This document shows, in pieces, positions 2,591 to 57,812 of a stretch of DNA of 64,000 nucleotides. A program made the position numbers and the translations under genes. Positions within the stretch are counted from its first letter, which is position 1; every line of letters begins with the position of its first letter. Origin of the DNA: Lactiplantibacillus pentosus (GTDB lineage Bacteria; Bacillota; Bacilli; Lactobacillales; Lactobacillaceae); contig NZ_CP032757.1 of the NCBI RefSeq assembly GCF_003641185.1, positions 2,356,001-2,420,000 on the forward strand. The letters run 5' to 3'. The notes beneath the pieces are model-generated. The model made no database searches and was not told the origin of the DNA. It was given only the letters and a program-made list of their open reading frames with translations.

Positions 2591-3230
2591 ATTTTGTGCT
2601 TGTTATTCTCTAGCATTATAGATGATTAAATCATGCCGGTTGGGATTGCTGAATATTAGGTGACTGGTCCTTCGAGCAAAGCTTAATTGGTATCGATGAT
2701 GACTGATGGCATTTAATTACTGAGAGGATTGCCTGAATATGAGTCACTCATTTTAATACTATTAATTTTGATGATGACTAATCTTAAATTTAACCGATAA
2801 ATTACCTTTGTTTATAATTGAAGATTTTGCAATCTCAAACGACTTGAGAAAATCCTGACAAGTTCAGTGAGGATGTTTGTCAGATGCCTTATCGCATGGG
2901 TAAAAGAGTTTATCTATTGTTAGAACCGGTATGACAGTTGAATATCAAATTGGCCCTATAGCGTAGAAGCAAAGACTAATCTAACCAAAAGTTGGGTCCG
3001 CACATGTCTGCCTTTCGAATACCATCCCGGCTGGAAGGTATTCTGGGGCAAGGCCCAGTGGTGAAATTTCACTTAGCAAGCGTTTTTGGCTTGGTTAGTG
3101 AAAGACCAGTATTTAAGACGCGGGTTATCGGCTTAAATCTGTGTCCAGCGGGTCTCAGCTGGCGGCTCTTGAGCTTAAAAAATGGGATGATTTAATCATG
3201 CTTCATGACGAATTAACTAGCACAATACGG
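2591..3230 (-). repeat. Dispersed palindrome-ended element, copy A
   Basis: Gene-free stretch between the gshA-like gene and thiI. It is bounded by the 13-bp odd palindrome ATGATTAAATCAT (2622-2634) and its counterpart ATGATTTAATCAT (3187-3199), with outer inverted arms around TTGTGCTAGTTA (about 2594-2612 and 3209-3227). The right part (2990-3200) is the L module in reverse orientation, shared with copies B, D, E and F (for example CTTCCAGCC and GGCAGACATGTG on the minus strand). The R module is almost entirely deleted next to the left palindrome. The middle is AT-rich with no supported gene. Confidence 0.85.
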
Positions 3231-3252
3231 ATGACTTATTTTATCTAAGCAA

Positions 3253-3292
3253 CAAAAAAACGAGCACCCAATTTAGCTAGGCACTCGTTTTT
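3253..3292 (-). terminator. Intrinsic terminator after thiI
   Basis: On the minus strand AAAACGAGTGCC and GGTGCTCGTTTTTTT form a hairpin with a T-run just beyond the thiI stop. Confidence 0.85.
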
Positions 3293-3301
3293 AAATAAAA
3301 A

Positions 3302-4519
3302 TTAAAGTAGTTCCGCAAAAACGTCTTCTTGAGCATTAAGGTAGTTTTCACCGGGTTTGATCTCGGTCATCTTAATTCCCGCCAAAGCACGTTCCATTAA
3401 ACCATCAACGTCGATGCGTTCTTCGTATGCACGTGAACGATCCAACTTCGGATGAGTCTTCGGTGCTGGTGGCGCAAAGATCGTACAGCAATCTTCAAAT
3501 GGCATAATTGATAAATCATAGGTGTCAATGTCTTCAGCAATCTTGATGATTTCCGTCTTATCCATCGAAATCACTGGCCGTAAAACGGGTAAAGTCGTCA
3601 CATCATTGATAGCAATCATACTATCCATGGTTTGTGAGGCGACTTGCCCAAGTGATTCACCGTTGAAAATCGCCTTGCCATGCCGTTGACGCGTCACTGC
3701 GTCCATCAACCGCATCATCAAGCGCCGTTGCACGGTCATCAAGTAGCCTTCTGGAACCTTTTCCTTGATTTCCTCTTGGATCTCGGTAAATGGAATTTGG
3801 ATAAACTTGACGCGACCAGAGTAACTGGCAAGCGTCGAGGCTAATTGTTTGGCCTTGGCGAGCGCTTGTTCACTCGTGTATGGCGGACTAAAGAAGTGCA
3901 CCATTTCCATGTCAACGCCGCGTTTCATCCCGAGATAACCGGCAACTGGTGAGTCGATACCACCAGATAACATCAGCATCCCCTTACCAGCAGTCCCTAC
4001 TGGCAGGCCACCAGCACCTTGAATCGTTTCGGATGACAAGAAAATCCCATTCAACCGAACTTCGACACGCAGGACGATGTCTGGATTCTTCATCTTAACT
4101 TGAATCCCGTCGACGTGGTCAAGAATTTGACCACCCAACATATCGTTGATCTGGTTGGTGTCGTATTCGAAGTGGTGGTCAGAACGACGGGTGTTGATTT
4201 TAAACGTCATTCCCGGTTGATACTGGGCTTTGATCATTTCGATCGCCGTCTCGTAAACCGCATCCATATCCGTATCCACTCGAATACTTGGTGAAAAGTT
4301 TTGAATCCCGAACACTAACTTCAAACGATCCATGACAGGTGCAGCATCTTCATCGTTTAACATGATGTGCATCCGGTCACGGTTCGCATGAACTTTGAGC
4401 GTTGGGAAATCGTGCAACGCGTTGCGGACGTTGCGGCCCAAGCTATCGATAAAATTCCGCCGGTTCTTACCCTTGGTCGACAACTCGCCGTAACGTACCA
4501 TAATTTCAGTGTACTGCAT
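3302..4519 (-). CDS. thiI: tRNA 4-thiouridine synthase ThiI
   Basis: Adenylates U8 of tRNA and transfers sulfur to form s4U; in some bacteria it also supplies sulfur for thiamine. About 405 residues, the Firmicute form without the C-terminal rhodanese domain found in E. coli. An N-terminal ferredoxin-like/THUMP region (1-170) is followed by the PP-loop SGGIDS at 185-190. A conserved cysteine pair ([11 protein letters not shown]) lies in the C-terminal part. ATG at 4519 follows AAGGA; the upstream in-frame TTG is less likely. The cysteine desulfurase gene immediately upstream is the expected sulfur donor. Confidence 0.95.
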
Positions 4520-4536
4520 GAACAAGTTCCTTTCCG

Positions 4537-5691
4537 TTATGCATCTGCATTGATTTTAGAGAATTTTTGATAAAGCTGATCAAAAACTTTGATAAACTGG
4601 TCGGCTTCTGCCAACGTATTATTTTCATCAAGACTGACCCGGACGGCACTCGTGGCAATATTTTCTTGCACGTGCATCGCCATCAACGTACTTGACGCCA
4701 TGTGTTTCTTAGACGAACAAGCACTAGTCGTCGAAATATAGATGCCCTGATCTTCAAACGCGTGGACGATGGTTTCGCCCCGCACCCCATTGATCGTGAA
4801 GCACAGGATATGTGGTGCAAATCCATCAGTCGGTTGGCTAAAAATCGTGACTTTCGGGAACGTCTTGATGTGGTCGTAGATTCGCTGTTTGATGGCACGT
4901 TCGCGAGTGACCTTTTCGTCCTCACCCGTCAATAATAGACGTAGGGCCTTCGCCATTCCAGCGATTGCGGGCAAGTTTTCAGTCCCCGAACGCCAGTTAC
5001 TTTCTTGACCGCCACCATTCATGAGCGGTGCTAATTTGCGCCCATTCCGCGCATAAATAAAGCCCACGCCCCGGGTCGCATGAAACTTATGGCCTGAGAA
5101 CGTCACAAAATCGACCCGGTCATTCATGATCATGTTCTGAATGCCCTTGCCGATGCCTTGAACCGCATCAATATGGAAGTGAATCTTTGGATATTGTTTT
5201 AACAAATCAGCCACTTCAAGTAGTGGTTGAATCGTACCAATCTCATTGTTGACGGCCATCGTGGAAACCAGAATGGTGTCCGGTCGAATCGCCGCTTTCA
5301 AATCAGCCACGTTAATACGGCCTTCTTGGTCCACGGGTAAGTACGTCACTTCATACCCCAGTTCTTTCAACTGTTCCATCGAATTGTGGATAGCCGGATG
5401 TTCGACCGCCGTGGTAATCAGATGTTTCCCAAAGGCACGTTTCTCAATCGCCGTCCCCTTGAGCACCCAGTTATCGCCTTCCGTCCCACCTGACGTGAAG
5501 AAGATTTCGTGCGCCTGAACGCCAAGTAAATCGGCAATCTGTTGGCGCGATTGTTCCAATAAATGAAAGGCTGTTTCACCAAAGTTATGCAAACTAGAAG
5601 GATTCCCCCAGATTTTCTGAGAGACCTTCGTATAAGTATCTAGTACGGCGGGAGCAGCTTGCGTCGTCGCACTATTGTCAAAATAAATCAT
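4537..5691 (-). CDS. Cysteine desulfurase (IscS/NifS family)
   Basis: PLP enzyme that converts cysteine to alanine and hands the sulfur on as a persulfide. 384 residues. The PLP lysine is K202 in [10 protein letters not shown] and the mobile catalytic cysteine is C325 in [13 protein letters not shown] at 5691 has AGAAGG seven bases upstream. It lies 17 bp before thiI on the same strand, matching the NifZ-ThiI arrangement of Firmicutes, so its main job here is probably tRNA thiolation rather than Fe-S assembly. Confidence 0.93.
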
Positions 5692-5961
5692 TACTACGCC
5701 TTCTCTTTCCAAGAAAGTGTGCCTTGCACTTACTTTCGATAAGAATTCTTTGCAATTATACCAAAAATTAGGACTGAAACAAGATTTTTTGTTTCAAAAA
5801 CGCGATTAATCGACGCTAGCAGCAGTATCGCTGAAGCTCACAAGCAATCATCCTGCAATTGTCGGGCATTTTTTGACGCCAATCAAAAACCAGCTGGCCA
5901 TGGTTGCGTTCATCACAATCACCACCAACTGGTTGGCATTTATCTTCTTGATTGGCGCTAA

Positions 5962-7683
5962 CTAAGCATCAGCATCTGAACTAGCCGCCTGCTTATTAGC
6001 ATAGTAGCTGTCCTCAATCCGTTTGTAAGAGCCAGGATCGACCTTATCGACCGCCGTCGCAATAACTTCCAAGCTCCGTGCGTAGTCATGGGCTTCGTTG
6101 AACAACCGTTGTGCTTCAACACTCGCTTCTTGAACATCTTCATGACTGTTTTTATAACGATTAGCATATTGCAAGAGTTGTTCGGCAATCACCGCGGCAT
6201 CCGTCAAATCATCAGTCTTCTCTTTTAAAGTGGCCATATCGGCCTGAATCACGATGAGTTGCTTCGTAATATCATCCATGTTAATCACAAGTTTATTGAT
6301 ATCATGGTCTAAGCGCTCGATTTCCTTAGAAACGACCCTGAAGTAATCCAGATAATCCTTAGGTAAACCTGGCAGATTCAGATTTTCCACTTGGCGTTTG
6401 ACCGCATGGATTTCAAAATCAAACCGTTGCAAGGTCTCATGAGCCTTAGATTCCTCAGCAGTCAAGTTGGCAACACCCTGGTTGATTGCCACTTGTTCCT
6501 CTTCAATGCCGGTGAGTTGTTTGTCCTGCTCCTCAAAGTGAGCTGCAATCTCACTGAAAACCGCTTGCTTACTGGTAATCGCAGTCGTATCGGCTTGATA
6601 AACCGCCTGAATATTCTTCAATTGCTCGTTCAATTCACGCGTCCGTTCAACTTCATTGTTATTGAGTGTATAACTTTGTGCTAACCGGTCCAATTCGACT
6701 TGTAAGCGGTGGTTTTGATTCATCGCGTGCGTCAAGAACTTGCTGATCTCTTCTTGGCGTTGGTCAACGATGGCTTTAGCGTCGATTTCTGCCTGCATCA
6801 CATCGTACAAATGGTCGATACGCTTCTCAATGGCATGATTGCCATTTTCCGCATCGGTAACTTTCAAGTCGCCCAGTAACGCGGTGTTATCATCGATGGC
6901 TTGTTTGAGTCCCTGAATCTCAGGTTCGATTGAATCCACTTCAAAGTGAAAATGTTGGGCGGTCAATTGTTGATAACCACTCGCTAGTTCAGCTAATTGA
7001 TCAGGAAAGCCACTCACTAAGTCTTTATAAATCGGTGGAATCCGGTCAATATCCATTTCAAGGGCACCGGTATCATGATGTAACTGGTCTAAGACTTTTT
7101 CAGCCGCATCGTGATCGCCAGCCTTCGCTAATTCAGAAAAATGATCGAAGTCACTTTCCAAGTTGGCGAGCTGATCTTCAAGTTTGTCGATACTCGGGCC
7201 AAACGAGAAGTTCTGCGACAACAACGTTTTCCGCAAGTTTTGATATTTTTTCTCTAAACTCGCAACCGCTTGACGGTGGGCCGCATCGGCGTCATCTAAG
7301 GCTTGTAGCCCGTCACGAATTTCGGCCTGCCGCTGTTCGATTTGATCCAACAGTGCCGCGACTTTTTTTAGATTTTGTTGGGCGTCTAAGAACTTGATGC
7401 CGCGCGCCTCGGTGGTAATTGTCGCCAATTTATCGCTTACTGCGGGCAACTGGTCGTTTTCCACTTCTTGACCAGCACTCTGCAACGCTTCCAACTTTTC
7501 TAACGAGCCGCCCGTTAGTCCGAGTTGTTCAATTTTTTCGAAATCCGTGGTCTGTGATTGTTTCACTAACGCTTGTTGGCGCTCCGTCAGTTGGCGGACT
7601 TGCTTGTCAATATAATATTGAAAGCCCTTGACCGCCGCGTAGATGACAATCGCAACCACCACAATGCCGATTGCTACTTGCAT
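5962..7683 (-). CDS. ezrA: Septation ring formation regulator EzrA
   Basis: Membrane-anchored regulator of FtsZ ring assembly in Gram-positive bacteria. 573 residues, the usual length. One N-terminal membrane segment (about residues 2-20) is followed by a Lys/Arg-rich stop-transfer, then an almost entirely helical coiled-coil body made of spectrin-like repeats rich in Glu, Gln and Leu. No signal peptide cleavage site is evident. It is separated from the desulfurase gene by a 270-bp gap and from the next plus-strand gene by a divergent promoter region. Confidence 0.95.
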   Translation of the reverse strand: MQVAIGIVVVAIVIYAAVKGFQYYIDKQVRQLTERQQALVKQSQTTDFEKIEQLGLTGGSLEKLEALQSAGQEVENDQLPAVSDKLATITTEARGIKFLDAQQNLKKVAALLDQIEQRQAEIRDGLQALDDADAAHRQAVASLEKKYQNLRKTLLSQNFSFGPSIDKLEDQLANLESDFDHFSELAKAGDHDAAEKVLDQLHHDTGALEMDIDRIPPIYKDLVSGFPDQLAELASGYQQLTAQHFHFEVDSIEPEIQGLKQAIDDNTALLGDLKVTDAENGNHAIEKRIDHLYDVMQAEIDAKAIVDQRQEEISKFLTHAMNQNHRLQVELDRLAQSYTLNNNEVERTRELNEQLKNIQAVYQADTTAITSKQAVFSEIAAHFEEQDKQLTGIEEEQVAINQGVANLTAEESKAHETLQRFDFEIHAVKRQVENLNLPGLPKDYLDYFRVVSKEIERLDHDINKLVINMDDITKQLIVIQADMATLKEKTDDLTDAAVIAEQLLQYANRYKNSHEDVQEASVEAQRLFNEAHDYARSLEVIATAVDKVDPGSYKRIEDSYYANKQAASSDADA

Positions 7684-7853
7684 ACGAATACCCCTTACAT
7701 TAATTATTCCGTTTTAATTGCGTTGCGCCTCACCCTGCTGAGAACCGCAGCCTTGCTTTTTTCTGAAAATCCAATTAAAATCTATCTTAAATTATAACAT
7801 AGACGTAACTAACGGACAGTAACAATTTGTTAACATTCAAGGAGGATTTTCAC

Positions 7854-8315
7854 ATGGCTACCACCGAAACATCACTTATGAACCAACAGCTCGACGCGTT
7901 ACTTTTTCAAGAAACGAACTTGGTCGCGAACCTAGCCAACGCTAGCGCCCTCCTCAACAGTACGTATGACGACTTGAACTGGGCCGGCTTCTACTTATTT
8001 AACGATGAGACTGGCGAGCTCGACCTCGGTCCCTTTCAAGGCAAAGTTGCCTGCATGCACATCAAAGTCGGTGCAGGGCTCGTTGGTACGGCCTTTGAAA
8101 CGCAAACTAACCAACGGATCGCGGACGTTCATCAATTTCCAGGCCACATTGCCTGCGATAGTGCCAGCAATTCTGAAATCGTCGTTCCAATCACCAAAGA
8201 CGGTCACCAAATTGGCGTCCTCGACGTTGATTCCCCATCCTTAGACCGTTTTAGTGCCGAAGATGAGGCTGAATTGACTGAATTCGTTGCAATTTTAACG
8301 ACGCACATTGACTAA
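7854..8315 (+). CDS. msrC: Free methionine-(R)-sulfoxide reductase (GAF domain)
   Basis: Reduces free Met-(R)-sulfoxide in the cytoplasm, part of oxidative repair. A single GAF domain of 153 residues with the family signatures NWAGFYL and FPGHIACDSASNSEIV. The catalytic cysteine of the IACD motif is C101, and C67 (KVAC) is also present. The third family cysteine, normally in GVCGTA, is replaced by valine (GLVGTA, V77). The start at 7854 is fixed by AAGGAGG eight bases upstream; an upstream ATG at 7827 lacks a site. It lies directly before the rpsD leader. Confidence 0.9.
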   Translation: MATTETSLMNQQLDALLFQETNLVANLANASALLNSTYDDLNWAGFYLFNDETGELDLGPFQGKVACMHIKVGAGLVGTAFETQTNQRIADVHQFPGHIACDSASNSEIVVPITKDGHQIGVLDVDSPSLDRFSAEDEAELTEFVAILTTHID

Positions 8316-8337
8316 CCATTACCAAACGTGTTATGCT
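8308..8337 (+). promoter_or_regulatory. Promoter of rpsD
   Basis: TTGACT (8308-8313) and TATGCT (8332-8337) are separated by 18 bp. The -35 box overlaps the last codons and stop of the preceding gene. The position fits a transcript starting near 8344 that carries the folded rpsD leader. Confidence 0.55.
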
Positions 8338-8343
8338 ACTCTT

Positions 8344-8512
8344 TGTGTAAAATAATGCAGCAGTAAGTGGGTAAGCTCGTCAACAGATTGGTGCCAATAT
8401 TTTGGTCAGTTAGTAACCTGCGGCTGCAATGGTGAACCCTGCAGTCCAATCTGAACGAATATCGAACTTACATCGGATTATTTTACTCCAACTAAAATTA
8501 TTGGAGGAAACA
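8344..8512 (+). promoter_or_regulatory. Structured 5' leader of rpsD (candidate S4 autoregulatory element)
   Basis: Three nested helices can be read directly. GTAAAATAAT (8347-8356) pairs with ATTATTTTAC (8477-8486). GTAAGT (8363-8368) pairs with ACTTAC (8466-8471). CAGATTGG (8384-8391) pairs with CCAATCTG (8446-8453). An inner hairpin uses CTGCA/TGCAG. Together they form a long multi-part structure ending just before the rpsD ribosome binding site. In Bacillus, S4 represses its own translation through an rpsD leader; assigning the same role here is inference. Confidence 0.7.
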
Positions 8513-8516
8513 TTTT

Positions 8517-9125
8517 ATGTCTCGTTATACAGGTCCAAGTTGGAAGATTTCCCGTCGTTTGGGAATGTCCCTTTCAGGTACTGGTAAAGAATTAGCTCGC
8601 CGCCCTTACGCTCCTGGTGATCATGGCCAAGGCCGTCGTGGTAAGCTTTCAGAATACGGTACTCAATTACGTGAAAAGCAAAAGTTACGGATGATGTACG
8701 GTTTAACTGAACGTCAATTCGCTAACTTATTCATCAAAGCTGGTAAGATTCGCGAAGGTAAGCATGGTGTTAACTTCATGATCTTACTCGAACGTCGTTT
8801 GGATAACATGGTTTACCGTTTAGGTTTGGCAACGACTCGTCGTCAAGCACGTCAATTAGTAAACCATGGTCACATCACTGTTGATGGCAAGCGCGTTGAC
8901 ATCCCTTCATACGAAGTTAGTGTTGGCCAAGTTGTCTCAGTTCGTGAAAAGTCCAAGAAGTTGGCTGTTATCACTGGCGCCGTTGAAGCCGTGGTTGCAC
9001 GTCCTAACTTCGTTCAATTCGATGCTGATAAGCTTGAAGGCTCATTAACTCGTTTACCAGAACGTGAAGAACTTGAAGCAGATATCGACGAATCATTAAT
9101 CGTTGAATACTACAACAAGCTTTAA
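8517..9125 (+). CDS. rpsD: 30S ribosomal protein S4
   Basis: Primary 16S rRNA-binding protein that starts assembly of the 30S body and helps set translational fidelity. 202 residues, standard length. The N-terminal S4 region opens [16 protein letters not shown], and the S4 RNA-binding fold is near 93-155 ([20 protein letters not shown]). A strong GGAGG lies upstream of the ATG. Codon use is highly biased, as expected for a ribosomal gene. Stand-alone gene with its own leader and terminator. Confidence 0.99.
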
Positions 9126-9140
9126 TTTCCGGTTATTAAA

Positions 9141-9167
9141 AACCGTCGCGGTTGCGGCGGTTTTTTT
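9141..9167 (+). terminator. Intrinsic terminator of rpsD
   Basis: AACCGTCGC and GCGGCGGTT form a tight GC-rich hairpin followed by seven T residues. Confidence 0.93.
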
Positions 9168-9217
9168 GTGTTCTTTTAACGATTTAGCTGTTCAAGAATC
9201 GGGCGCTTCTAGGCATA

Positions 9218-9982
9218 CTACTGAACCCCAATGACGCCGCCCTCGCCTGCATTAAAGCTTCGAATTCTTGCACCCACTTCAGCCATCATCCTCCTAGCAA
9301 CCGGTATCTGATCACCATTATTCATCATTAACATTTGAAGCGAGCGATCCATCACTTCAATATTGGGCACATTCACTACAAATGACCGATGAACACGAAT
9401 AAAGCTCGGGTTAGCAACCACTATTTCCGATAGCTTTGCGGTCACGGTTCGTTTGGAAAAATTAGTCACCACGTCAATCTTGTGTGGTTCATCAGCCGTC
9501 TGAAAGTAGTTGACGTCCAACAGCGGCAGCTGCAAACTGATCGATTTATTTTCAAAGAAAAACCAGCCCCCGTTCTTCTGACTACTACCAATCATCGGCA
9601 AACGCAAACTCGCTTTCAGATCAGTCACAATTCGCCGATTCAAGTCGCTGTCGCCTATGCTGTACGTATTTAGTGGGTAAACACGTGACTGGATAATCGC
9701 CATCGCATTTACGGGCTGCGTAGTGACTAAACTGATCACTGCGAATTTATCAACCGCTCTAATCAGCCGGCAAACCTTTAAGGCATACGTGTCCCAATGG
9801 GCAAAAACCACAAAATAAACCTGATAATTGGGTTTTTGCGTCAAATAACGTGCGACGCGTTTTAATGACGACAAATGGCAGACGCGTTTGACTAGCGATA
9901 ATTCAGGCCCACCATTGAACTTCTGGCAAAAACATTCCCCACTCGCGAAATCCTCAGAACAAATGCAAACATCGAATTTCAT
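9218..9982 (-). CDS. LytTR-domain transcriptional regulator (orphan, AgrA/PlnC-like)
   Basis: DNA-binding regulator with a C-terminal LytTR domain (about residues 150-245), recognisable by SFIRVHRSFVVNVPNIE and the preceding HKIDVVTNFSKRTVTAKLSEI. The N-terminal 130 residues resemble a response-regulator receiver in length but I cannot place a clear phospho-acceptor Asp. The first 20 residues contain three of the protein's cysteines (CICSE, GECFC). No histidine kinase or peptide gene is adjacent, so input is unknown. The ATG at 9982 follows GGGGG; an upstream start 16 codons earlier lacks a site. Convergent with rpsD. Confidence 0.8.
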   Translation of the reverse strand: MKFDVCICSEDFASGECFCQKFNGGPELSLVKRVCHLSSLKRVARYLTQKPNYQVYFVVFAHWDTYALKVCRLIRAVDKFAVISLVTTQPVNAMAIIQSRVYPLNTYSIGDSDLNRRIVTDLKASLRLPMIGSSQKNGGWFFFENKSISLQLPLLDVNYFQTADEPHKIDVVTNFSKRTVTAKLSEIVVANPSFIRVHRSFVVNVPNIEVMDRSLQMLMMNNGDQIPVARRMMAEVGARIRSFNAGEGGVIGVQ

Positions 9983-10120
9983 TGATTTTCCCCCATCAAC
10001 GCTGTTTTTCATGGCAACACTAGAAGACAAGATACAATGATTAAACCTAACGCTTTACACCACAAAGTCTAGCATATCGCTTGGACGTTCTCTATCAATC
10101 GCGTCTCTTGTTTCATACAC

Positions 10121-10176
10121 TAAAACGGACAGTTGATCTAAGCAGCGCTATAGCGACTTAAATTAACTGTCCGTTT
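10121..10176 (-). terminator. Intrinsic terminator downstream of the 109-codon unknown gene
   Basis: AAACGGACAGTT and AACTGTCCGTTT form a long imperfect stem (with an inner CGCTATAGCG hairpin) flanked by T/A-rich ends. It faces the minus-strand gene that ends at 10204. Confidence 0.7.
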
Positions 10177-10203
10177 CCACTCAATCTGAATGACATCAAT
10201 AAT

Positions 10204-22080: not shown

Positions 22081-22121
22081 AATGATCAATCCTTATTTTT
22101 TATTTAGTCTTCTAAACCTAT

Positions 22122-22367
22122 GCGCATTGTGCGAGTTAATCTTCGTAATTGATGATTAAAACGTGCCAGTAGCTGGTTTACCGTTAGTCAGTCGAGTCTA
22201 TTTCCTAATCCAACTTTCAGGGCTGCCGACAACGCTAAAACGAGGCGGCATCGATTGAAACTCACGTAGCACCCCACTGCTCCCAGCGGGTCCAAACTGG
22301 CGGGTTTGGTGCTTAAGAACTGGCGCGTTTAATCATCTTTATTGTCATATCATAATCAACACAACAC
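22122..22367 (-). repeat. Dispersed palindrome-ended element, short copy G (deletion derivative)
   Basis: 246-bp element between gshF and rarA. The ends are inverted: GCGCATTGTGCGAGTTAAT and GATGATTAAAACG on the left, GATGATTAAACGCG and TTGTGTTGAT on the right (minus strand). Inside, 22218-22280 matches the R module of copies C and D (GACAACGCT...TGAAACTCACG...CCCACTGC). From 22281 on it matches the outer end of the L module of copy A (CCCAGCGGGTC...CTGGCGGG...GCTTAA). The whole middle is missing. Confidence 0.8.
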
Positions 22368-22443
22368 GTAAACCTATTATTCGGTGTCGGTCACTGTAAA
22401 TGCTATAATAGTTGGGACTAGTTTTGCAAGGAGGAATTACACG

Positions 22444-25124: not shown

Positions 25125-25973
25125 CGCGTTGTGCTAGTTATTCCTTAGCAGTAAAGATGATTAAATCATGCTATTTTCTAAGTTCAAGTGCTGCCAGCTG
25201 AAACTCGCTGGAAACGGTGCGAGTTACTGGAAACTTGCTGTTGTAGGTTCGTCCCAAGCCGGCTTTCAGGCATTCTGGGCCTTGCCCAGAACACCTTCCA
25301 GCCTGGATTGCATTCGAAAGGCAGACATGTGTGGACTCAACTTTTTGTTGGATTGTTCGTTGATTCTTGGCAAACAGTCATTTGACATTCAACTGTCAGA
25401 CTTGTTCTCAATGATAGCTAAACTTTCTTCCCGGGTTTTAAATCATCGAATCATTGGGTTCACTGGACTTGCCATAACTTTCTTTGGTCGGCCTGAGATA
25501 GCAAAGTTTCGAACGATAAACGAGGACAATTTTATCGACTAATTTCAAGACCAGTTGCCATTTGGATTAGCGAGTAACATTTAGGAAATCTTCCAGTACA
25601 TAAATACTATAGAGCATCACAGTTTCCGCTTAATCATTTGCCTGAAGAACTAGGCACTTAAGATTCAGTGGTCAATTGCACCAAGATAAGTGGCCGTTCA
25701 TCCGCCATTCGAGCGACTTCCCGACTGGAGGGGCTGGCTGACAATGCTCAAGGGCGAAATTCTTCTTGTCCGGGTGAATCTCCCGGGCTAGAAGAAGACT
25801 CGTATTTGAAATTGCGCAGTGATTTTCTGCGTGAGTTCAAATCGATGTCCGCCCTGTTCCAGCGTTGTCAGCCGGCCCTGGAAGTCGGAATAAGGAGATC
25901 ACCGGCAGACGAACAGCAATCCAAAACAGCATGATTTAATCATGACTCATGACAAATTAACTAACACAATGCG
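25125..25973 (+). repeat. Dispersed palindrome-ended element, copy B (best-preserved ends)
   Basis: 849-bp gene-free element. Both terminal palindromes are intact: ATGATTAAATCAT (25157-25169) and ATGATTTAATCAT (25931-25943). The outer arms CGCGTTGTGCTAGTTA (25125-25140) and, reversed, CGCATTGTGTTAGTTAAT (25956-25973) form the terminal inverted repeat. L module 25170-25330 (short form), AT-rich middle 25331-25660, R module 25661-25930 with two strong hairpins (TTCTTCT...AGAAGAA; ATTTGAA...TTCAAAT around GCGCAG). The open frames inside lack ribosome sites and are not called genes. Confidence 0.88.
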
Positions 25974-33559: not shown

Positions 33560-34010
33560 TTTCATGTATGGGGTAGTGACTTGTTCGTCGGCATTTGCTC
33601 GTCCTAGTCCGACTTCCGGGGCCGGCTGACAACGCTGGAACAGGGCGGACATCGATTTGAACTCACGCAGAAACCCACTGCGCAATTTCAAATACGAGTC
33701 TTCTTCTAGCCCGGGAAACCCACCCGAACAAGAAGAATTTCGCCCTTGAGCATTGTCCGCCAGCCCCTTCAGTCGGGAAACCGCTCGAATGGCAGATGAA
33801 AAGCCACCTATCTGGGTGCAATTGACCACTGAATATTAGGAGACTGGACCTTCAGTCAAACTTATAAACGGTATCGTTGATGCTTTAAGGCATTTGAATT
33901 CTGCGAAGCGTACTGAATATTCGTCACTCATCTTAATGATACTAAATTTCAATGGCAACTAGTCTTGAACTTAGTCGACAAAATTCCCTTCGTTAGAATT
34001 CAGGACTTTG
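33560..34010 (-). repeat. Dispersed palindrome-ended element, truncated copy C
   Basis: The R module (33575-33835, reverse orientation) is nearly identical to that of copies B and D, including both hairpins. It continues into the middle region shared with copy A (CTGAATATTAGGAGACTGGACC at 33828-33849 and TCACTCATCTTAAT). It stops near 34010; the L module and its palindrome are absent. Lies between hicD and a small membrane ORF. Confidence 0.82.
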
Positions 34011-43364: not shown

Positions 43365-44290
43365 TTTGCATGAAAGATGAGTAGTACCGATGAGTCGGAT
43401 TCCTGTTCGTCAGCCGATGCGCGTCTTAGTCCGACTTCCGGGGCCGGCTGACAACGCTGGAACAGGGCGGACATCGATTTGAACTCACGCAGAAACCCAC
43501 TGCGCAATTTCAAATACGAGTCTTCTTCTAGCCCGGGAAACCCACCCGGACAAGAAGAACTTCGCCCTTGAGCATTGTCAGCCAGCCCCTCCAGTCGGGA
43601 ACCCGCTCGAATGGCGGATGAACGACCACCTATCTTGGTACAATTGACGACTAATTTCTTGTGACTAAAACTTCAAGTAAACTTTTAGACAAAGTCGATA
43701 ATGATTTGTGAAATTGAATGCTAATCTGCAGATTATTGTCTATTTTCAAATCGAGCCTATTCTTACAGTTAAATGCAGAATGCTATCCGTGTATGATTTT
43801 AGGATTTGTAGTCCTAATCGACTAGAAAGTCTCCGATAATATGTATTATGTATTAATGCAACTAGTCAGTAGGATCAAAGCACAAGTGCGACGAGAGACT
43901 GTCGGAAACTAATCTGAAAGTTAAGGACAAAAACAAAATGTTACTAAGAACCAACAATCAGTTCATCAAAAGTTGGGCCCACACATGTCCGCCTTCGAAT
44001 ACTATCCCAGGCTGGAAGGTATTTCTGACAATGCTCAGCGTTTTTCAGAGTGTGAGGTTCAGACGGGTTGGGACTGAGGATTAGCCTAGCTAGAGCGTTA
44101 AGCGGTGAATTTCCGCTTGGCGTTCTGGCGTAGCTAACCGGAAGTCCCAGCGTTGTCATAAATGCCTGGAAGCCGGCCTAGGACGACACCACGACTGCAA
44201 GTTTACGCTAATTCGCCCTGTTTCCAGCGAATCTCAGCTGGCTGCTTTTGACCTTAAACGGTGTTCAGAACTCGAATTATCGTGGCACAA
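43365..44290 (-). repeat. Dispersed palindrome-ended element, copy D
   Basis: Long copy between murA and atpC, in reverse orientation. R module 43430-43645, nearly identical to copies B and C. AT-rich middle 43646-43965. L module 43966-44275, whose 44049-44145 core matches copies E and F with few changes. Part of the outer L arm (the segment with GATGGACRCAGATTTAAG in E/F) is deleted at 44150. The terminal palindromes are worn down, but GTGGCACAAC at the right end matches the outer arm. The end abuts the atpC terminator. Confidence 0.85.
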
Positions 44291-47185: not shown

Positions 47186-49263
<2,078 letters not shown>

Positions 49264-49274
<11 letters not shown>

Positions 49275-49832: not shown

Positions 49833-50075
<243 letters not shown>

Positions 50076-50082
50076 CTAGAAA

Positions 50083-50796: not shown

Positions 50797-50829
50797 TGAA
50801 TATCACCTCTTTCCTTTAATTTCGGTACT

Positions 50830-50858
50830 ATGATAACCTTAACCGTTGCGACTAGCAA
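50830..50858 (-). promoter_or_regulatory. Candidate promoter of the atp operon with embedded dyad
   Basis: TTGCTA (rc of 50853-50858), 17-bp gap, TATCAT (rc of 50830-50835), about 35 bp before atpB. CGTTGC (50844-50849) and GCAACG (50855-50860) form an inverted repeat over the -35 box, a possible regulator site. Confidence 0.5.
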
Positions 50859-50977
50859 CGTCAATTTTATCGTAATCCGAAATGATAGATCAGGGTCGCC
50901 CCTAATCAAAATACAAAGGTAATAATACCACCACCGTCGAAAAAATTCAAAATAATTTCAACTTTTCGTCAATCAAT

Positions 50978-51029
50978 AAAAATCCAACAACATCAAGCTT
51001 TCATGAAGCTTTCACATCGTTGGATTTTC
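50978..51029 (-). terminator. Intrinsic terminator of the uracil permease gene
   Basis: AAAATCCAACgaTGTGAAAGCTT pairs with AAGCTTGATGTTGTTGGATTTTT (written in two arms of under 24 bases each side, minus strand), followed by T-rich sequence. Confidence 0.85.
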
Positions 51030-51073
51030 ATCATCTGGACTTTATTTTCATGTGCTAACTGACAACCATCGAT

Positions 51074-52354
51074 TTACTTCTCGTTGACAGCCACCTTTGG
51101 TAATATCAGGTTCATAGCGATTCCGAGCACTGTTGCGACAGCTAAACCACTAAATTGAAAGCTCCCAATTTGTAAGTAAGCATTCCCAATTCCAATCACC
51201 AAAATCGCTGATGCAATCATCAAATTACGCTTCTGATTAAAATCAACTTTATTATCAATCAGGATGCGCATTCCACTGGAGGCAATCACCCCAAATAGCA
51301 AGAAACTGACACCACCAATGACTGGAGACGGAATACTTTCAATCAGTGCGGACAGCTTGCCGACAAAACTAAAGATGATGGCAAAAAACGCCGCGCCACC
51401 GAGCACGTAAATACTGTGAACCCGAGTAATGGCCAACACACCGATATTTTCACCGTAAGATGTCACGGGCGGGCCACCAACAAAACCAGCAATAATTGAC
51501 GCGGTCCCGTCACCAGCTAACGTGTGATTAAGACCTGGATCTTTGAAAAAGTTTCGTTTGGTCAACTTGTTCAGCACCATAATGTGGCCCATGTGTTCTG
51601 ACATCGTGACAAAGGCAATCGGCGCCATACTTAAAATTGCCCCCCAGTAGATGCCGGGATGGTAACTAATAAACGGTAATTGAAAGGCTGGCATCGCAAA
51701 CCAGTGCGCCTTTTCAACACCAGAGAAGCCCACGATTCCGACTAAGACCGCCAAAATATAACCACAGACGATGCCGAGTAAGATTGGCACTAAACTCATG
51801 AAGCCGCGCAGATACATATTAAAGATTACCGTCAGTAACATCGTCGCAATCGCGACCGCAAAATATTTCAAATCATAATTATTGCCATTCATCGTCGCGT
51901 CCTTGGCCGCGGTACTGGCGAGTGACAATCCAATCACCATGACGATTGGTCCAACAACAATTGGTGGCAACGCCTTGTCGATCCAATCCGACCCAATCAA
52001 TGTCACCAACAGACTGACAAGCAAGTAGACGCACCCAACGGCGACCGTCCCTTGCGCGATTGCTGGATAACCAGCCGTCTTCATCAGCGACTGCATAACA
52101 ACGATGAATGAAAAGCTAGACCCCATGTACGCTGGAATCTTACCACGCGTAATCAGGATATACATCAACGTCCCGACCCCGGAACTAAAAAGCGCAATGC
52201 CCGGATTTAACCCCACCAGAATTGGCACCAGGACGGTCGACCCAAACATGGAGAACAGATGCTGTACGGATAATCCTAACCAACTACCAAACTTTGGTCG
52301 GTCATGAATGTCTAATACGACTTCATCATTATGAAACGCCGCTTTCTTTGTCAT
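51074..52354 (-). CDS. uraA: Uracil permease (NCS2 family)
   Basis: 426-residue uracil:proton symporter with about 14 membrane segments. Motifs GSSFSFIVVMQSL, APIAFVTMSEHMGHIMVLNKL and GDGTASIIAGFVGGPPVTSYGEN fit uracil carriers. ATG 52354 follows AAGGGG; the track upstream of it contains no site. Controlled by a PyrR attenuator in its leader, which links uptake to pyrimidine supply, and located near upp. Confidence 0.94.
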   Translation of the reverse strand: MTKKAAFHNDEVVLDIHDRPKFGSWLGLSVQHLFSMFGSTVLVPILVGLNPGIALFSSGVGTLMYILITRGKIPAYMGSSFSFIVVMQSLMKTAGYPAIAQGTVAVGCVYLLVSLLVTLIGSDWIDKALPPIVVGPIVMVIGLSLASTAAKDATMNGNNYDLKYFAVAIATMLLTVIFNMYLRGFMSLVPILLGIVCGYILAVLVGIVGFSGVEKAHWFAMPAFQLPFISYHPGIYWGAILSMAPIAFVTMSEHMGHIMVLNKLTKRNFFKDPGLNHTLAGDGTASIIAGFVGGPPVTSYGENIGVLAITRVHSIYVLGGAAFFAIIFSFVGKLSALIESIPSPVIGGVSFLLFGVIASSGMRILIDNKVDFNQKRNLMIASAILVIGIGNAYLQIGSFQFSGLAVATVLGIAMNLILPKVAVNEK

Positions 52355-52380
52355 AACGCACCCCTTTATTAAATCATTGC

Positions 52381-52500
52381 AAAAGAAAAGACAGCCCACC
52401 ACTCAAAGCGGCTAGGCTGTCCGAAATTACGTCTGGCTTCCTTACAAGTCGACGTCCGTTCATCCTTATCAGCCTCTCTGAGCTAATTTAAAGGAACTGT
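52381..52500 (-). promoter_or_regulatory. PyrR-binding attenuator of uraA
   Basis: The minus-strand leader has AGAGAGGCTGATAAGGATG (rc of 52461-52479), the PyrR binding consensus. A hairpin GGACAGCC...GGGCTGTC with a T-rich tail follows at 52381-52423. When UMP is high, PyrR should favour the terminator. The motif is seen; the mechanism is known from Bacillus and lactobacilli. Confidence 0.88.
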
Positions 52501-52599
52501 TTAATTGCAATTAGTGTACTCGTCTGTTGAATACTTGTCAACTAACGGTTTAAATGTCTTTGCTTTTTCGCTGGTATGTTTGGTGGTTTGTGGTTGTCG

Positions 52600-53360
52600 A
52601 TCCGTTAAAGTCAACTGCGGCCAGCTTAGGACCGCTGGGAACAGTGCGAGTTAGCGCAAACTTACAGCAGTATGCTCGTCCTACGCCGGCTTCCAGGCAT
52701 TTCTGACAACGCTGGAACGCGATGGACGCAGATTTAAGCCGACAAACCACGTCTTAAATACTGGTCTTCCACGTTATCTGCAATATAGATGAAACGTGTT
52801 CGGGTCAGACTGGGACTTCCGGTTAGCTACGCCAGAACGCCAAGCGGAAGTTCACCACTTAACGCTCTAGCTAGGCTAATCCTCAGTCCCAACCCGTCTG
52901 AACCTCACACTCTGAGAACCACTGAGCATTGTCAGAAACGCCTTCCAGCCTGGGCAGTTTTCGCAAGGCGGACATTTGCGGACCCAACTTCAATTGAACT
53001 GATCATTGATTCTTAGCCAACCGTTCATTTGATATTTATCTGTAAGACTAGTTTTCAATCACTGACTAAATGTTTGAATTAGATAAAGTATCAGTATCAC
53101 AGGATATCATCAGGAATATTCACAATTGGCAGAGAAGCCCAAGACCACAGTTGGAAACAAAAGCAAATTTTATCGTCTAACCATATGTTCAGTTTCAATT
53201 GGAGTAAATAATAATCTGTGGGCGATTTTACTGGTGTATCTAAATTTCTTAAATCATCAACGATACTGATTCAAGTTTCACTTGAAGGTCGGTCTTCTAA
53301 CTGCCAGTGATCAATTGCGCTAAGTTAGGTAGCCGTTCATCTGCTATTCGAGCAGGTTTC
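52600..53360 (+). repeat. Dispersed palindrome-ended element, copy E
   Basis: Copy between the uraA leader and upp. L module 52615-53020 is very close to copy F; over 52788-52913 only two bases differ. That core can fold as CAGAC..GGGACT with AGTCCC..GTCTG enclosing CTTCCG/CGGAAG. AT-rich middle follows; the R module is cut off after GTTTCCGAC near 53360. Terminal palindromes are not recognisable. The rest of the gap to 53636 shows no gene. Confidence 0.83.
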
Positions 53361-53636
53361 CGACTACCCCACTGTTTCACCGTAAACAGCCGCTCTCAAA
53401 AATTTTTCTGAGACTCATAAAGAACATGCCAACTAATCGTCTTTTTGAATCACATTTAAAGCGAAATAGTGATTAGTGCAACACGTGCACACTTATTCAT
53501 TCATAGTTTTACCAAAAATCCGGTAGTCTCATCGACAAAGATCAAATTCACTGTGGTAAGTAATCGTGAATCCAGTCTATCTCTCACTGGACAGGTCCTA
53601 TAATATAGTAAGGATTTTTTCAAATATTAGTGAACC

Positions 53637-53686
53637 AAAAAGGCAGCCCCACCCCACGCGTTTGTGGAATGGTGCTACCTTTTTTA
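53637..53686 (-). terminator. Intrinsic terminator of upp
   Basis: AAAAAAGGTAGCACC and GGGGCTGCCTTTTT (minus strand) form an imperfect stem with T-run directly after upp. Confidence 0.8.
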
Positions 53687-53693
53687 TGGCAAC

Positions 53694-54323
53694 TTACTTC
53701 GTACCAAATAACCGGTCGCCAGCATCGCCCAAACCTGGAACGATGTAGCCATCTTCATTTAAATGGTCATCAAGTGCTGCGGTATAAACATCGATGTCTG
53801 GATGTGCGTCGCGAAGGGCTTTAACCCCTTCAGGCGCTGCAACTAAGCACATGAACTTAATATTGCTAGCACCACGCTTCTTCAACATATCCATGGCCAT
53901 GATGGCTGAACCACCAGTGGCTAACATTGGATCAACGACAAATAACTGACGTTGTGAAATGTCACTTGGTAATTTAACAAAATATTCGACTGGCTTTAAC
54001 GTCTTTTCGTCACGATACATACCGACGTGACCAACTTTAGCCGCTGGAATCATGTTTAAGAACCCATCGACCATTCCTAAACCAGCCCGTAAAATCGGCA
54101 CAATGGCAACTTTCTTACCAGCCAATGTCTTTTGCGTTGACTTGGCAATCGGTGTCTCGATTTCAATGTCCTTCAATGGCATGTCGCGTGATACTTCGTA
54201 CGCCATCAACGTTGAAATTTCGTTGACCATTTCCCGGAAGACTTTCGTCCCACAGTTCTTTTCCCGAATAATTGTCAATTTATGTTGAATGAGCGGATGA
54301 TCCAAAACCTCAAACTTACCCAT
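53694..54323 (-). CDS. upp: Uracil phosphoribosyltransferase
   Basis: 209-residue salvage enzyme, uracil + PRPP to UMP. N-terminal [21 protein letters not shown] loop [11 protein letters not shown]; uracil site [23 protein letters not shown] 54323 is chosen because homologues begin MGKF; a GTG four codons upstream abuts AAGGAG. Confidence 0.96.
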
Positions 54324-54402
54324 GTTGCTACGCACACTCCTTAGTGATTTCTTTCTATTGTAGCTAATTTGGAAAGAAAAAACCAGACCTGATATAAATT
54401 AC

Positions 54403-55641
54403 TTAATCAACATCAATTGGATGTTTGGCTGTTAATGCCATGGCTTGTTGCTTAACGTCATCCAAGTTTGCTTGGTCTGTCGGCGCTTGTAACGCTTGCA
54501 AGATTAATTCAGCAACCTTGGCGGCATCCGCTTCATCAAATCCACGTGTCGTAATCGCTGGCGTTCCTAAACGAATCCCAGACGTCTTAAAGGCCCCTAA
54601 AGTTTCGTTCGGGATGGCTTCCTTGTTGACGGTGATGTAGACCGTATCGAGTAGATCTTGAACTTGCCGACCATTTAATCCCGACTTCGTGACGTCGATC
54701 GTCATTAAATGGTTGTCCGTCCCACCAGAGATGACCCGGACTAGGTCAGATTCAGTAAAGACCTTCGCCATTGCTTTCGCATTATCAATAATGTGTTGTG
54801 CATAGACTTTAAATTCTGGTTGTAAGTCTTCGCCCAAAGCAATCGCCTTACCAGCAATCACGTGGTCTAACGGGCCACCCTGATTGCCAGGGAAGACGAC
54901 TGAATTGATTTTCTTACCATATTTTTCCTTCGCGAGGATCATCCCACCACGAGGACCACGTAACGTCTTGTGTGTCGTCGTCGTGACCACGTCGGCGTAA
55001 GGGACTGGATTTGGATGCAATCCGGCTGCCACTAAACCAGCAATGTGGGCCATGTCGACCATCAAGAGTGCACCAACGGCATCCGCAATTTCACGGAACT
55101 TCTTAAAATCAATTAACCGACTATAAGCCGAAGCCCCCGCAACGATTAATTTTGGTTGGAATTCTTGCGCTTGTGCCAAGATGGCATCATAGTTCAGCTC
55201 TTCGGTCTCAGGATCTAACCCGTATCCTTGGAAATCATAGAGCTTACCAGAAAAGTTAACACTCGAGCCGTGTGTCAAATGGCCCCCGGCGTCTAATGAC
55301 ATCCCCATAACCCAGTCGCCCGGTTGAATTAATGCCATGTACGCTGCCGCATTCGCTTGTGAACCTGAGTGAGGTTGAACGTTAGCGTATTCCGCGCCAA
55401 ATAATTTCTTAGCACGTTCAATCGCTAAGGTTTCAACTTGGTCAATATATTCGTTACCGCCGTAAAAACGGTGACCTGGATAACCTTCGGAGTATTTATT
55501 AGTCAGCACACTCCCCTGTGCTGCTCGAACACCTTTCGAGACAATGTTTTCGGAAGCAATCAACTCAATGTTGTGCTGTTGCCGTGCCTGTTCCTTACTA
55601 ATCGCAGCCCATACTTCTGGATCTTGTTCTTGGTAATTCAT
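54403..55641 (-). CDS. glyA: Serine hydroxymethyltransferase
   Basis: 412-residue PLP enzyme interconverting serine and glycine with tetrahydrofolate. N-terminal [14 protein letters not shown] lysine in [21 protein letters not shown] precedes ATG. Lies between tsaC and upp, a conserved order. Confidence 0.97.
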
Positions 55642-55699
55642 GAATAAATCTCCTCCATTTCACAAGTGACAACTTTCGGGTTTTCCCGACTTGCAATTA

Positions 55700-56719
55700 T
55701 TATACACTAAAATGAGTCTGTCCGGCAGATTTATTTAAGCGATTCATGTAAGCTAACCCTAACCCTTTATTTTCAAAGGCTTGGCAGAGAATATCCTTAA
55801 TTTCAGTTTCCGTATCAAAGTGTCGTAAGCCGGCAAACAATCGTTGACTTGCCGATTGAATATCAGTCCCAAGCGAAAATCGTTCGCAATTTGACGGGAT
55901 TTGATTTTGATTCAGAATGGCACCCGTCGCCATGACCCCCATCGGGACGTCTTGTTGCGCTGCCCAGGCTAAAGCTTGTGGCCAATCTTCCGAACGATCA
56001 ACGATATAAACCTGTGCATTCGGTGCATAGTGCTTGTATTTCATCCCCGGCGCCTTAGGAACTTCAGTGGCCCCGACGTGATGTGCTTCTGTCTGAACGG
56101 GCATGCCAATCACGGCTTCGATTGCTTCTGGCGTAATGGCGCCGGGCCGCAAAATCGCCGGCTGATCAGTCGACAGATCCAAGACGGTTGATTCCACCCC
56201 GACCTTAGTTGGGCCATCATCCAGAATACCGGCAATCTTACCGTTCAAATCGTGATAGACGTGCTCAGCCAAGGTCGGACTTGGTTTGCCTGACGTATTC
56301 GCAGACGGCCCCACGATTGGTGTCTTAGCTGCCCGAATCAATGCCAAGGTCGCAGCGTTATCCGGATTGCGAAATGCTGCGGTCTGTAAGCCGCCCGTCA
56401 CCTCGGTGGCAAGTGCGTTTGGTTTTAACTTAAAAATCATCGTTAATGGTCCGGGCCAAAAGGCTTTGATCAACTTCTTGGCTGCTTCTGATAGCGGCAT
56501 GGCAAACCGCTCAACTGTCGCCACGTCGGCAACGTGGACGATCAGCGGATTATCACTCGGACGTCCCTTCGCGCGATAAACTTGTTTCACTGCATCGACA
56601 TTCGTGGCATCCGCACCTAAGCCATACACGGTCTCGGTCGGGAAAGCCACTAGTTCACCCGCAGCTAACAGCGCCGCGGCAGCTGGAATTTCATCCGGCT
56701 TAAATACTTTGGTTTCCAT
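55700..56719 (-). CDS. tsaC: L-threonylcarbamoyladenylate synthase (TsaC/Sua5)
   Basis: 339 residues; makes threonylcarbamoyl-AMP for the t6A37 modification of ANN-decoding tRNAs. YrdC domain (10-195) with AFPTETVYGLG, KGRPSDNPLIVH, and PSANTSGKPSPT; the extra C-terminal Sua5 domain (about 230-339) is joined by a PGMKYKHYAP linker, making it the long form. ATG 56719 has GAGGA ten bases upstream; the 67 codons before it run into element copy F and are not coding. Confidence 0.95.
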   Translation of the reverse strand: METKVFKPDEIPAAAALLAAGELVAFPTETVYGLGADATNVDAVKQVYRAKGRPSDNPLIVHVADVATVERFAMPLSEAAKKLIKAFWPGPLTMIFKLKPNALATEVTGGLQTAAFRNPDNAATLALIRAAKTPIVGPSANTSGKPSPTLAEHVYHDLNGKIAGILDDGPTKVGVESTVLDLSTDQPAILRPGAITPEAIEAVIGMPVQTEAHHVGATEVPKAPGMKYKHYAPNAQVYIVDRSEDWPQALAWAAQQDVPMGVMATGAILNQNQIPSNCERFSLGTDIQSASQRLFAGLRHFDTETEIKDILCQAFENKGLGLAYMNRLNKSAGQTHFSV

Positions 56720-56775
56720 AATTACTGATTCCTCTACTTTATTGTATTTATAATTTGTGATTGACGATTTAATAT

Positions 56776-57812
56776 GCATTATTAGTGCTAATTTGTCTTG
56801 AATCGTGATTACAACGTGCTGATTTTTAAATTCAAAACAGCCAGCTGGAAAATGGGGCGAGTTTCGTGTAAACCTATATGACAGATGCATCCTACTCCGG
56901 CTTCCAGGCATTTCTGACAACGCTGGAACGCGATGGACACAGATTTAAGCCGACAACCCACGTCTTAAATACTGGTCTTTCACGTTAGTTGCAGTATGGA
57001 TGAAACGTGTTCGGGTCAGACTGGGACTTCCGGTTAGCTACGCCAGAACGCCAAGCGGAAGTTCGCCGCTTAACGCTCTAGCTAGGCTAATCCTCAGTCC
57101 CAACCCGTCTGAACCTCACACTCTAAGAGCCGCCGAGCATTGTCAGAAACACCTTCCAGCCGGGGATCCTATTCGAAAGTCGGACATGTGCTGACCCAAC
57201 TTTTGATGAACTGATCGTTGGTTCTTAGTAAAATGTTGTTTTTACATTTAACTTTCAGAATAGTCTCCTACAGTCTCTAGCCACACTTGCGCTTTGATTT
57301 TTCTAAGCTAGTAACATTTTTGAATATTGTCAGAAATTCTATAGTCAGTTGAGATTGAGACTACAAATTTTAAAAATTTACATGGATACACGCTGCGACT
57401 AACTGTAAGAATTAGTTCTACGTGAAATTGGTCAATAGTCTTCTAATTAGCATTCAATTTTTGACTCACGATTAATGCTGTCTAAAAGTTTGTTTGAAGA
57501 TCCAGTCACTAAAAAGCTGTGGTCAATTGCACCCAGATGGGTGGCCGTTCATCCGCCATTCGAGCGGCTTCCCGACTGGCCGGACTGCCGGACAATGCTC
57601 AGTAGCCAAATTATTCTTAGCTGGAAGTGGGGTACTTCCGGCTTAGAATAAGACTCGTATTTGAAATTGCGCAGTGGTCTTCTGCGTGAGTTCAAATCGT
57701 CGGCTGCGTTCCAGCAATTGTCAGCCGACCCCGGAAGTCGGACTCAGACGTTCACCGGCTGACGAACCGAAGTCCAACTCATCAGCACGTTTTAATCATT
57801 TTTAGCACAACC
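56776..57812 (+). repeat. Dispersed palindrome-ended element, copy F (longest)
   Basis: 1,037-bp element filling the gap between prmC and tsaC. Left end GCATTATTAGTGCTAATTTG then CGTGATTACAACGTG; right end, reversed, GGTTGTGCTAAAAATGATT then AAAACGTGCTG, so the ends are inverted. L module 56835-57230 with the strongly conserved core at 56999-57124. AT-rich middle 57231-57530. R module 57531-57790 with hairpins. Outer arms of L (56900-56985) and R (57650-57760) are also inverted relative to each other, so the whole element can fold back. Confidence 0.87.

What the first reader, a model, noticed from the sequence alone, without database searches (positions are those of the whole stretch)
2591..57812. 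A dispersed family of non-coding, hairpin-rich elements: seven copies in 64 kb
Copies at about 2591-3230 (A), 25125-25973 (B), 33560-34010 (C), 43365-44290 (D), 52600-53360 (E), 56776-57812 (F) and 22122-22367 (G) share an L module, a variable AT-rich middle and an R module, in both orientations. All are intergenic, none encodes a supported protein, and together they occupy over 4.5 kb. At this density a whole chromosome could carry hundreds. I know of no named family that matches, though I cannot search.
Basis: partly seen in the sequence, partly recalled or inferred. Interest (0 to 1): 0.85.

Follow-up and report, generated by a model that had tools for sequence, protein, structure and literature searches.

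The report
Mobile elements carrying Y-shaped hairpin modules
Short gene-less jumping DNA elements, present in more than a hundred copies in this lactobacillus genome, carry an intricately folded, probably RNA, module whose shape has been kept by paired mutations across many genera, a large family that I could not find described.

Summary
The seven copies belong to a family of at least 139 loci in this 3.67-Mb genome. They are MITE-type elements: inverted terminal repeats, and perfect direct repeats of at least 8 bp at 10 of 62 copies with both ends readable (0.01 expected). What sets them apart is the cargo: one or two ~170-nt Y-shaped modules, in pairs oriented minus then plus (63 of 63 here; 48 of 54 in named genomes). 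The fold shows massive compensatory change (58 of 63 pairs) and, in its inner stems, GU far above AC in a structure-blind alignment (156 vs 31): one strand is kept as a fold, probably RNA. Structure models find it in 85 of 397 Lactobacillaceae genomes, 5 of 18 of a second family, and only the window's own genome among 398 of the phylum. In the second family it rides an ISL3-type MITE whose module-less form apparently also moved. No Rfam match. Fresh mutations look neutral, so selection seems to act on spreading lineages, not on each copy. What the fold does is inferred only.

The parts
2591..3230 (.). copy A (640 bp), both termini, one module
3024..3190 (+). Y-module of copy A (L type)
   Evidence: R2 model 78.5 bits; inverted repeats to F's L module
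22123..22368 (.). copy G, 246-bp internally deleted element with both termini
   Evidence: perfect 9-bp direct repeats at 22113-22121 and 22369-22377
25125..25973 (+). copy B (849 bp), reference copy
25125..25171 (+). left terminal inverted repeat of B (type I)
25250..25310 (-). remnant of B's L module: outer stem kept, inner hairpins lost
   Evidence: my reading against the modules; no R2 match there
25718..25893 (+). Y-module of B (R type), -104.6 kcal/mol, z -12.5
25923..25973 (+). right terminal inverted repeat of B (type II)
33604..33779 (-). Y-module of C (R type)
   Evidence: R2 151.8 bits
43426..43601 (-). Y-module of D (R type)
   Evidence: R2 153.3 bits
44005..44181 (+). Y-module of D (L type with a nested extra hairpin)
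   Evidence: R2 34.0 bits; sequence
52681..52881 (-). Y-module of E (L type)
   Evidence: R2 55.9 bits; 94% repeat of F's L module
56776..57812 (.). copy F (about 1037 bp), two modules
56892..57092 (-). Y-module of F (L type with nested hairpin)
   Evidence: R2 51.3 bits; R1 takes it as 275 nt, 56892-57166
56991..57124 (.). about 134-nt extra palindrome nested in F's L module; also found outside the usual place in L031
57569..57746 (+). Y-module of F (R type)
   Evidence: R2 105.0 bits

Best explanation
A family of non-autonomous DNA transposons (MITE type), moved in trans by insertion-sequence transposases, whose cargo is one or two copies of an ancient structured module: a long stem closed over a three-way junction with two hairpins. 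The vehicle differs between lineages: termini CGC[AG]TTGTGCTAGTTA with target repeats of 8-9 bp or more in Lactiplantibacillus; ISL3-type termini GGTTCT with 8-bp target repeats in a second Lactobacillales family. The module is kept as a single-strand fold, most likely as RNA made when host transcripts run through the element; with the (-)...(+) arrangement any transcript crossing a two-module copy, from either side, carries a sense-strand module in its downstream half. My best guess for its job is an RNA-level buffer (a 3'-end-protecting or processed hairpin that lessens the harm of the insertion, so that lineages with an intact fold spread better). Shown: repeats, termini, target repeats, ISL3 link in one genome of the second family, fold, covariation, strand asymmetry, orientation rule, distribution. 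Inferred: movement of module-less copies (from shared junction and target repeats), transcription, the RNA role, its benefit, and the transposase of the Lactiplantibacillus vehicle.
For: Termini and direct repeats: both ends readable in 62 of 107 oriented loci; 10 of 62 with a perfect direct repeat of 8 bp or more, mean 0.01 in 300 re-pairings of flanks. Second family: 11 of 16 aligned copies have perfect 8-bp direct repeats at the unit's ends (no shuffle control there); a 452-aa ISL3-family transposase gene (Pfam DDE_Tnp_ISL3 E 1.7e-53; NCBIfam transpos_ISL3 285.7 bits, cut-off 180) follows a closely similar terminal repeat at two loci of genome G112. Fold: 94.5% of cells paired against 66.8% shuffled, 58 of 63 pairs changed on both sides, covariation score 0.668 against 0.178, slid controls at most 0.094 (53 modules). 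Strand: structure-blind alignment of 150 modules, inner stems WC 4083, GU 156, AC 31, other 246; outer stems WC 2139, GU 311, AC 171, other 818. Orientation: 63 of 63; 48 of 54 with none of +-. Distribution: 17 of 21 genus, 85 of 397 family (12 of 40 genera), 29 of 395 order, 5 of 18 second family, 1 of 398 phylum.
Against: No expression data; promoter-like sites in and around B are not above chance (1 found, 1.3 expected). Fresh changes in this genome's copies look neutral: singletons in stems WC to GU 14, to AC 12, to mismatch 23, still WC 4, from GU 2 (89 of 92 rows), so most copies need not work. Movement does not seem to need the module in one lineage: two module-less copies of 103 and 104 bp, each with perfect 8-bp repeats, share one junction, and copy G kept only remnants. 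Only 4-6% of pairs are GU, low for an RNA and also compatible with a single-stranded DNA fold. 52 of 62 copies lack a perfect direct repeat of 7 bp or more. No transposase was established for the Lactiplantibacillus termini.
Confidence: 0.55

Rival explanations
1. The module is a DNA signal: it folds as single-stranded DNA (or a cruciform) during replication or transposition and is bound by a transposase or host protein to help the element move.
For: Inverted module pairs fit an inverted-repeat element; low GU share; structure kept between lineages while single copies drift neutrally.
Against: A double-stranded or cruciform signal would not give GU five times AC in the inner stems; a single-stranded DNA fold could. 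The same module sits in vehicles with different termini, and module-less copies seem to have moved.
Confidence: 0.2
2. The module is itself a mobile unit that inserts into hairpins or MITEs, as recalled for the E. faecalis EFAR repeats, and the MITEs are only its carriers.
For: Same core in different vehicles (other flanks also); core more uniform between copies than outer stem (singletons 0.17 against 0.69 per column); another hairpin nested in L modules.
Against: Core-free stems in B and module-free L373 and L377 look like deletions between short repeats (my reading); within a lineage the outer stem is largely the same, with a variant in some copies; no empty hairpin site was shown.
Confidence: 0.12
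3. Host-adopted regulatory RNA: copies regulate neighbouring genes and are kept for that.
For: Intergenic, folded, high copy; each of the three sites compared (D, E, F) is occupied in at least one of three relatives; core changes are rarer than outer ones.
Against: Neutral singletons in stems; shared sites decay by internal deletion; no favoured gene arrangement beyond few divergent ones (65 tandem, 22 convergent, 10 divergent of 97 usable loci of 107, open frames only).
Confidence: 0.08

Closest known systems
EFAR / Efa-1 repeats of Enterococcus faecalis
   Same: Efa-1: intergenic, 163 bp, 65 copies, two adjacent stem-loops (passages of PMC2267715). That it equals EFAR, a miniature insertion sequence of about 170 bp, is recalled; that paper is not held.
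   Different: No sequence of Efa-1 was at hand, so homology is untested; pairing of inverted modules, spread over genera and a closing long stem are not in the passages I saw.
bcr1-bcr18 repeats of the Bacillus cereus group
   Same: Intergenic repeats, some MITE-like, some with conserved structures; 84 of 165 and 62 of 155 copies lie in mRNAs (passages of PMC3446304).
   Different: Described there for B. cereus; our module spans many genera and different transposon vehicles.
ISL3-family MITEs
   Same: Termini, 8-bp target repeats and an ISL3 partner in genome G112.
   Different: Applies to the second family only; the Lactiplantibacillus vehicle has other termini and no established partner.
BOX, RUP, ERIC, Correia-type MITEs (recalled; BOX, RUP and ERIC also named in passages of PMC2267715)
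   Same: Folded, dispersed, non-autonomous.
   Different: Smaller and, as far as recalled, without paired Y-modules or spread over many genera.

Membership tests
MITE (non-autonomous DNA transposon) | terminal inverted repeats | tested here: met
   both ends readable in 62 of 107 loci; 113 terminal matches against 8 control
MITE (non-autonomous DNA transposon) | target-site duplication | tested here: met
   10 of 62 perfect at 8 bp or more, 0.01 expected; 11 of 16 in the second family
MITE (non-autonomous DNA transposon) | no transposase of its own, shares ends with an autonomous element | tested here: inconclusive
   met in G112 (ISL3). In G000 100 of 113 terminal matches were listed; those not near a known copy were fetched: no element with both ends and a transposase; one 20-nt one-ended match near an rve/HTH_38 gene on contig C2 stays open
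ISL3-family MITE (Lactiplantibacillus copies) | ISL3-like GG... termini and 8-bp repeats | tested here: not met
   termini CGC[AG]TTGTGC; perfect repeats of 9 bp or more in 7 of the 10
any Rfam 15 family | match at gathering score | tested here: not met
   window: only T-box and PyrR, outside the elements; L091 and six relatives, permissive search: nothing over a module
EFAR / Efa-1 | sequence homology | not tested
   no EFAR sequence available; the second-family hosts are unnamed
structured RNA | covariation beyond chance | tested here: met
   0 of 500 shuffles; that shuffle does not remove relatedness and the alignment was fitted to the model, but slid controls agree
structured RNA | transcribed | not testable with these tools
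   no expression data

The most novel reading that the evidence does not exclude
A structured RNA that behaves as transposon cargo: an ancient RNA module (protein-recruiting or catalytic) that has colonised unrelated DNA transposons across Lactobacillales, is carried in more than a hundred copies in some genomes, and is preserved by selection on spreading lineages rather than on any one copy.
Probability: 0.25. Interest if true: 0.85.

Novelty: new variant of a known kind. Interest (0 to 1): 0.64.

Why it matters
The first 90 merged match intervals alone cover 75 kb, about 2% of this genome, and the module occurs in 12 of 40 sampled Lactobacillaceae genera, yet Rfam has no model for it and my paper searches found no description. 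If the module is RNA, it would rank among the most repeated structured RNAs of food and gut lactobacilli, and it ties a conserved RNA fold to the spread of DNA transposons, a testable case of selection on a selfish lineage. The model can be used at once to annotate and mask these genomes.

Tried and rejected
Protein coding: the ORF list has frames of 88-124 aa inside B and C, but only 1 of 89 R modules is stop-free over 300 nt in any of six frames; no homology search of those frames was run. Autonomous element with the Lactiplantibacillus termini: the 3.9-kb pair 1271496/1275389 encloses ordinary-looking genes (names by eye); loci L146, L147, L358, L362 have no match to B, F or A; L147 on contig C2 has a 20-nt terminal match and an rve/HTH_38 gene but no second end. 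Phages: 0 of 50,697 records by BLAST; plasmids: 26 of 72,556, 19 Lactiplantibacillus and 7 Ligilactobacillus; one site is full in pAWA2013_3 and shorter in pPLAN563. Divergent promoters in the middle: 10 of 54 neighbouring pairs have spacers under 55 nt, so they cannot be general. Target-hairpin idea (outer stem = invaded hairpin): weakened because the outer stem is largely the same within a lineage. Clean empty sites between species: not obtained; D, E and F differ between G000, G016, G003 and G005, where alignable mostly by internal deletion. L. achengensis and C. furfuricola copies: other flanks, ends not resolved. In one search the class count of AC shared a key with the letter pair AC; the printed 127 stands for 88 by arithmetic; one search uses a separate key. 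Rare variants of up to 4 copies gave GU 10, AC 7 in the core, again near neutral.
Full report
OBSERVATION. Copy B (window 25125-25973) gave 86 matches in its own genome with 40 of 187 candidates scored; F and A gave 79 and 93 with 40 of 197 and 40 of 171 scored. The union is 90 loci covering 75 kb, which I fetched. A terminal-repeat pattern gave 113 matches with up to two mismatches against 8 for the reversed control. With terminal matches and model hits the count is at least 139 loci in 3.67 Mb (117 fetched loci with a copy plus 22 clusters of listed model hits); the searches were capped, so this is a lower bound. The species of the window itself was not determined.

MOBILITY. Elements end in about 45-bp inverted repeats of two types, CGCGTTGTGCTAGTTATTCTTTAGCATTAAAGATGATTAAATCATGC and CGCATTGTGCTAGTTAATTTGTCATGAATCATGATTAAATCATGC (my consensus). 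In 62 of 107 oriented loci both ends score well; 10 of these 62 have a perfect direct repeat of at least 8 bp, 7 of at least 9 bp, against 0.01 and 0.00 on average when flanks are re-paired. The order of terminal types against the inner modules is 33 I-II, 22 II-I, 5 II-II, 2 I-I, so inner part and termini have been inverted against each other. The other 52 of 62 show degenerate or no repeats, as old insertions would. [quoted passage not shown]

THE MODULE. Ninety-two matches to B's R module fold together into a Y: stem, then two hairpins on a three-way junction. Three of the 92 were in fact L modules, read in the opposite orientation, which showed that L and R are one module inverted. A covariance model R1 from 38 of the 92 was run on the genus: 17 of 21 genomes, with 128 of 128 scored candidates positive in G000 and in G016, and 113, 100 and 94 of 128 in G018, G008 and G003. 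In the family 85 of 397 genomes and 12 of 40 genera match. Plain BLAST with B had found 7 of 150 genomes, own included, with three candidates scored each. A second model R2 from 53 modules of many species found 29 of 395 genomes of the order, four of them in a second family, 5 of 18 genomes of that family at E up to 0.01 (best E 3.9e-8), and 1 of 398 of the phylum, namely G000 itself, which speaks for specificity.

STRUCTURE IS REAL. On 53 modules, 94.5% of 3141 cells pair (66.8% after shuffling), 58 of 63 pairs change on both sides, and slid controls collapse. That alignment was fitted to the model; in a structure-blind alignment of 150 modules the inner stems give WC 4083, GU 156, AC 31, other 246, and the outer stems WC 2139, GU 311, AC 171, other 818. 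GU above AC suggests that one strand is selected as a fold. B's module folds at -104.6 kcal/mol (z -12.5) on that strand and -85.2 (z -11.6) on the other. Conserved unpaired or mismatched motifs stand out by eye in the consensus: GGAG against CGGA, AG against GTTCC, AAA at the junction, CTTAG against CTTAG with its T-T mismatch.

ORIENTATION. In 80 named loci 153 modules were found, 150 of them aligned; of 54 neighbouring pairs within 1.2 kb, 48 are (-)(+), 4 (-)(-), 2 (+)(+), none (+)(-); 30 of 78 loci with an aligned module have a single one. In this genome 162 hits in 90 loci, 150 of them aligned, in 87 loci; 63 of 63 pairs are (-)(+). Spacers in the named loci run from 21 to 899 nt, the short ones too short for two promoters. 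So a transcript from either side meets an antisense module first and a sense module last.

VEHICLES AND PARTNER. In the second family modules were found singly, in units of 260-309 bp with ends GGTTCT...AGAACC; 11 of 16 copies have perfect 8-bp direct repeats, for example AGTTAAAT, TTTTTAAT, ATAATTGT. A closely similar left end stands before a 452-aa ISL3-family transposase gene at two loci of G112; the right end was cut by the fetched stretch but begins alike. Two copies of 103 and 104 bp lack the module, share one junction and have perfect 8-bp repeats: the simplest reading is that a deleted copy moved, so the module is not needed in cis there. The Lactiplantibacillus termini are different and no partner was established.

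SELECTION LEVEL. In 89 R modules of this genome, single-copy changes in stems went WC to GU 14, to AC 12, to mismatch 23, and stayed WC 4 times, with 2 more from GU, close to what neutral mutation gives. Rates in stems and loops are similar at each level, loops slightly higher in the two inner levels, but the core has fewer changes than the outer stem (0.15 against 0.72 per stem column), which may be selection or recent homogenisation. Between lineages pairing is kept almost perfectly. I read this as selection on spreading lineages more than on resident copies.

MECHANISM. Best reading: MITE-type elements with an RNA-level cargo that softens or exploits read-through transcription. The RNA step has no direct evidence here. 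Analogy, not membership: B. cereus repeats are found in mRNAs and one family, bcr3, correlates with mRNA decay (passages of PMC3446304).

KNOWN OR NEW. Rfam: nothing over a module. Papers: searches, seen as listings with starts of abstracts, and passages of PMC2267715, PMC10969869 and PMC3446304; none that I saw describes this family. The library lacks most subscription journals, and the EFAR paper that I recall is not held. I call it a new variant of a known kind: structured MITEs are known, but not, to my knowledge, one module conserved by covariation over many genera and in different transposon vehicles.

Noticed in passing
window 52384-52498 (-): PyrR binding-site leader (Rfam RF00515) about 100 bp from copy E (52600-53360), so E seems to sit just upstream of a pyr-type transcription unit.
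   Followed up: no
window 318-551 (-): T-box leader (RF00230, 120.7 bits).
   Followed up: no
window 56991-57124; L031:1738-1871: A second, about 134-nt palindrome nested in some L modules and found at 95% identity beyond the usual element in L031; it may be a separate small mobile hairpin.
   Followed up: partly
L227:3061-4300: In Companilactobacillus suantsaicola a (-)(+) module pair 899 nt apart encloses what looks like a small protein gene; I inspected the spacers of L227 and L268 only.
   Followed up: partly
L180, L181, L182: Single matches in three genomes of other genera (G198, G296, G418) score like Lactiplantibacillus L modules, and L180 looks nearly identical to one by eye, suggesting horizontal transfer. 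G296's contig has the length of a Liquorilactobacillus uvarum record.
   Followed up: no
L163:1174-1665: A (-)(-) pair of nearly identical modules (by eye), an exception to the orientation rule.
   Followed up: no
L383:1626-2984: ISL3-family transposase gene (452 aa) in G112, the same sequence at L381.
   Followed up: yes
L147:208-981 and 1538-1557 (contig C2): Gene with rve and HTH_38 domains (IS30-like by recall) with a 20-nt match to the Lactiplantibacillus terminal repeat about 560 bp away and no second end seen; an open lead for the missing transposase.
   Followed up: partly
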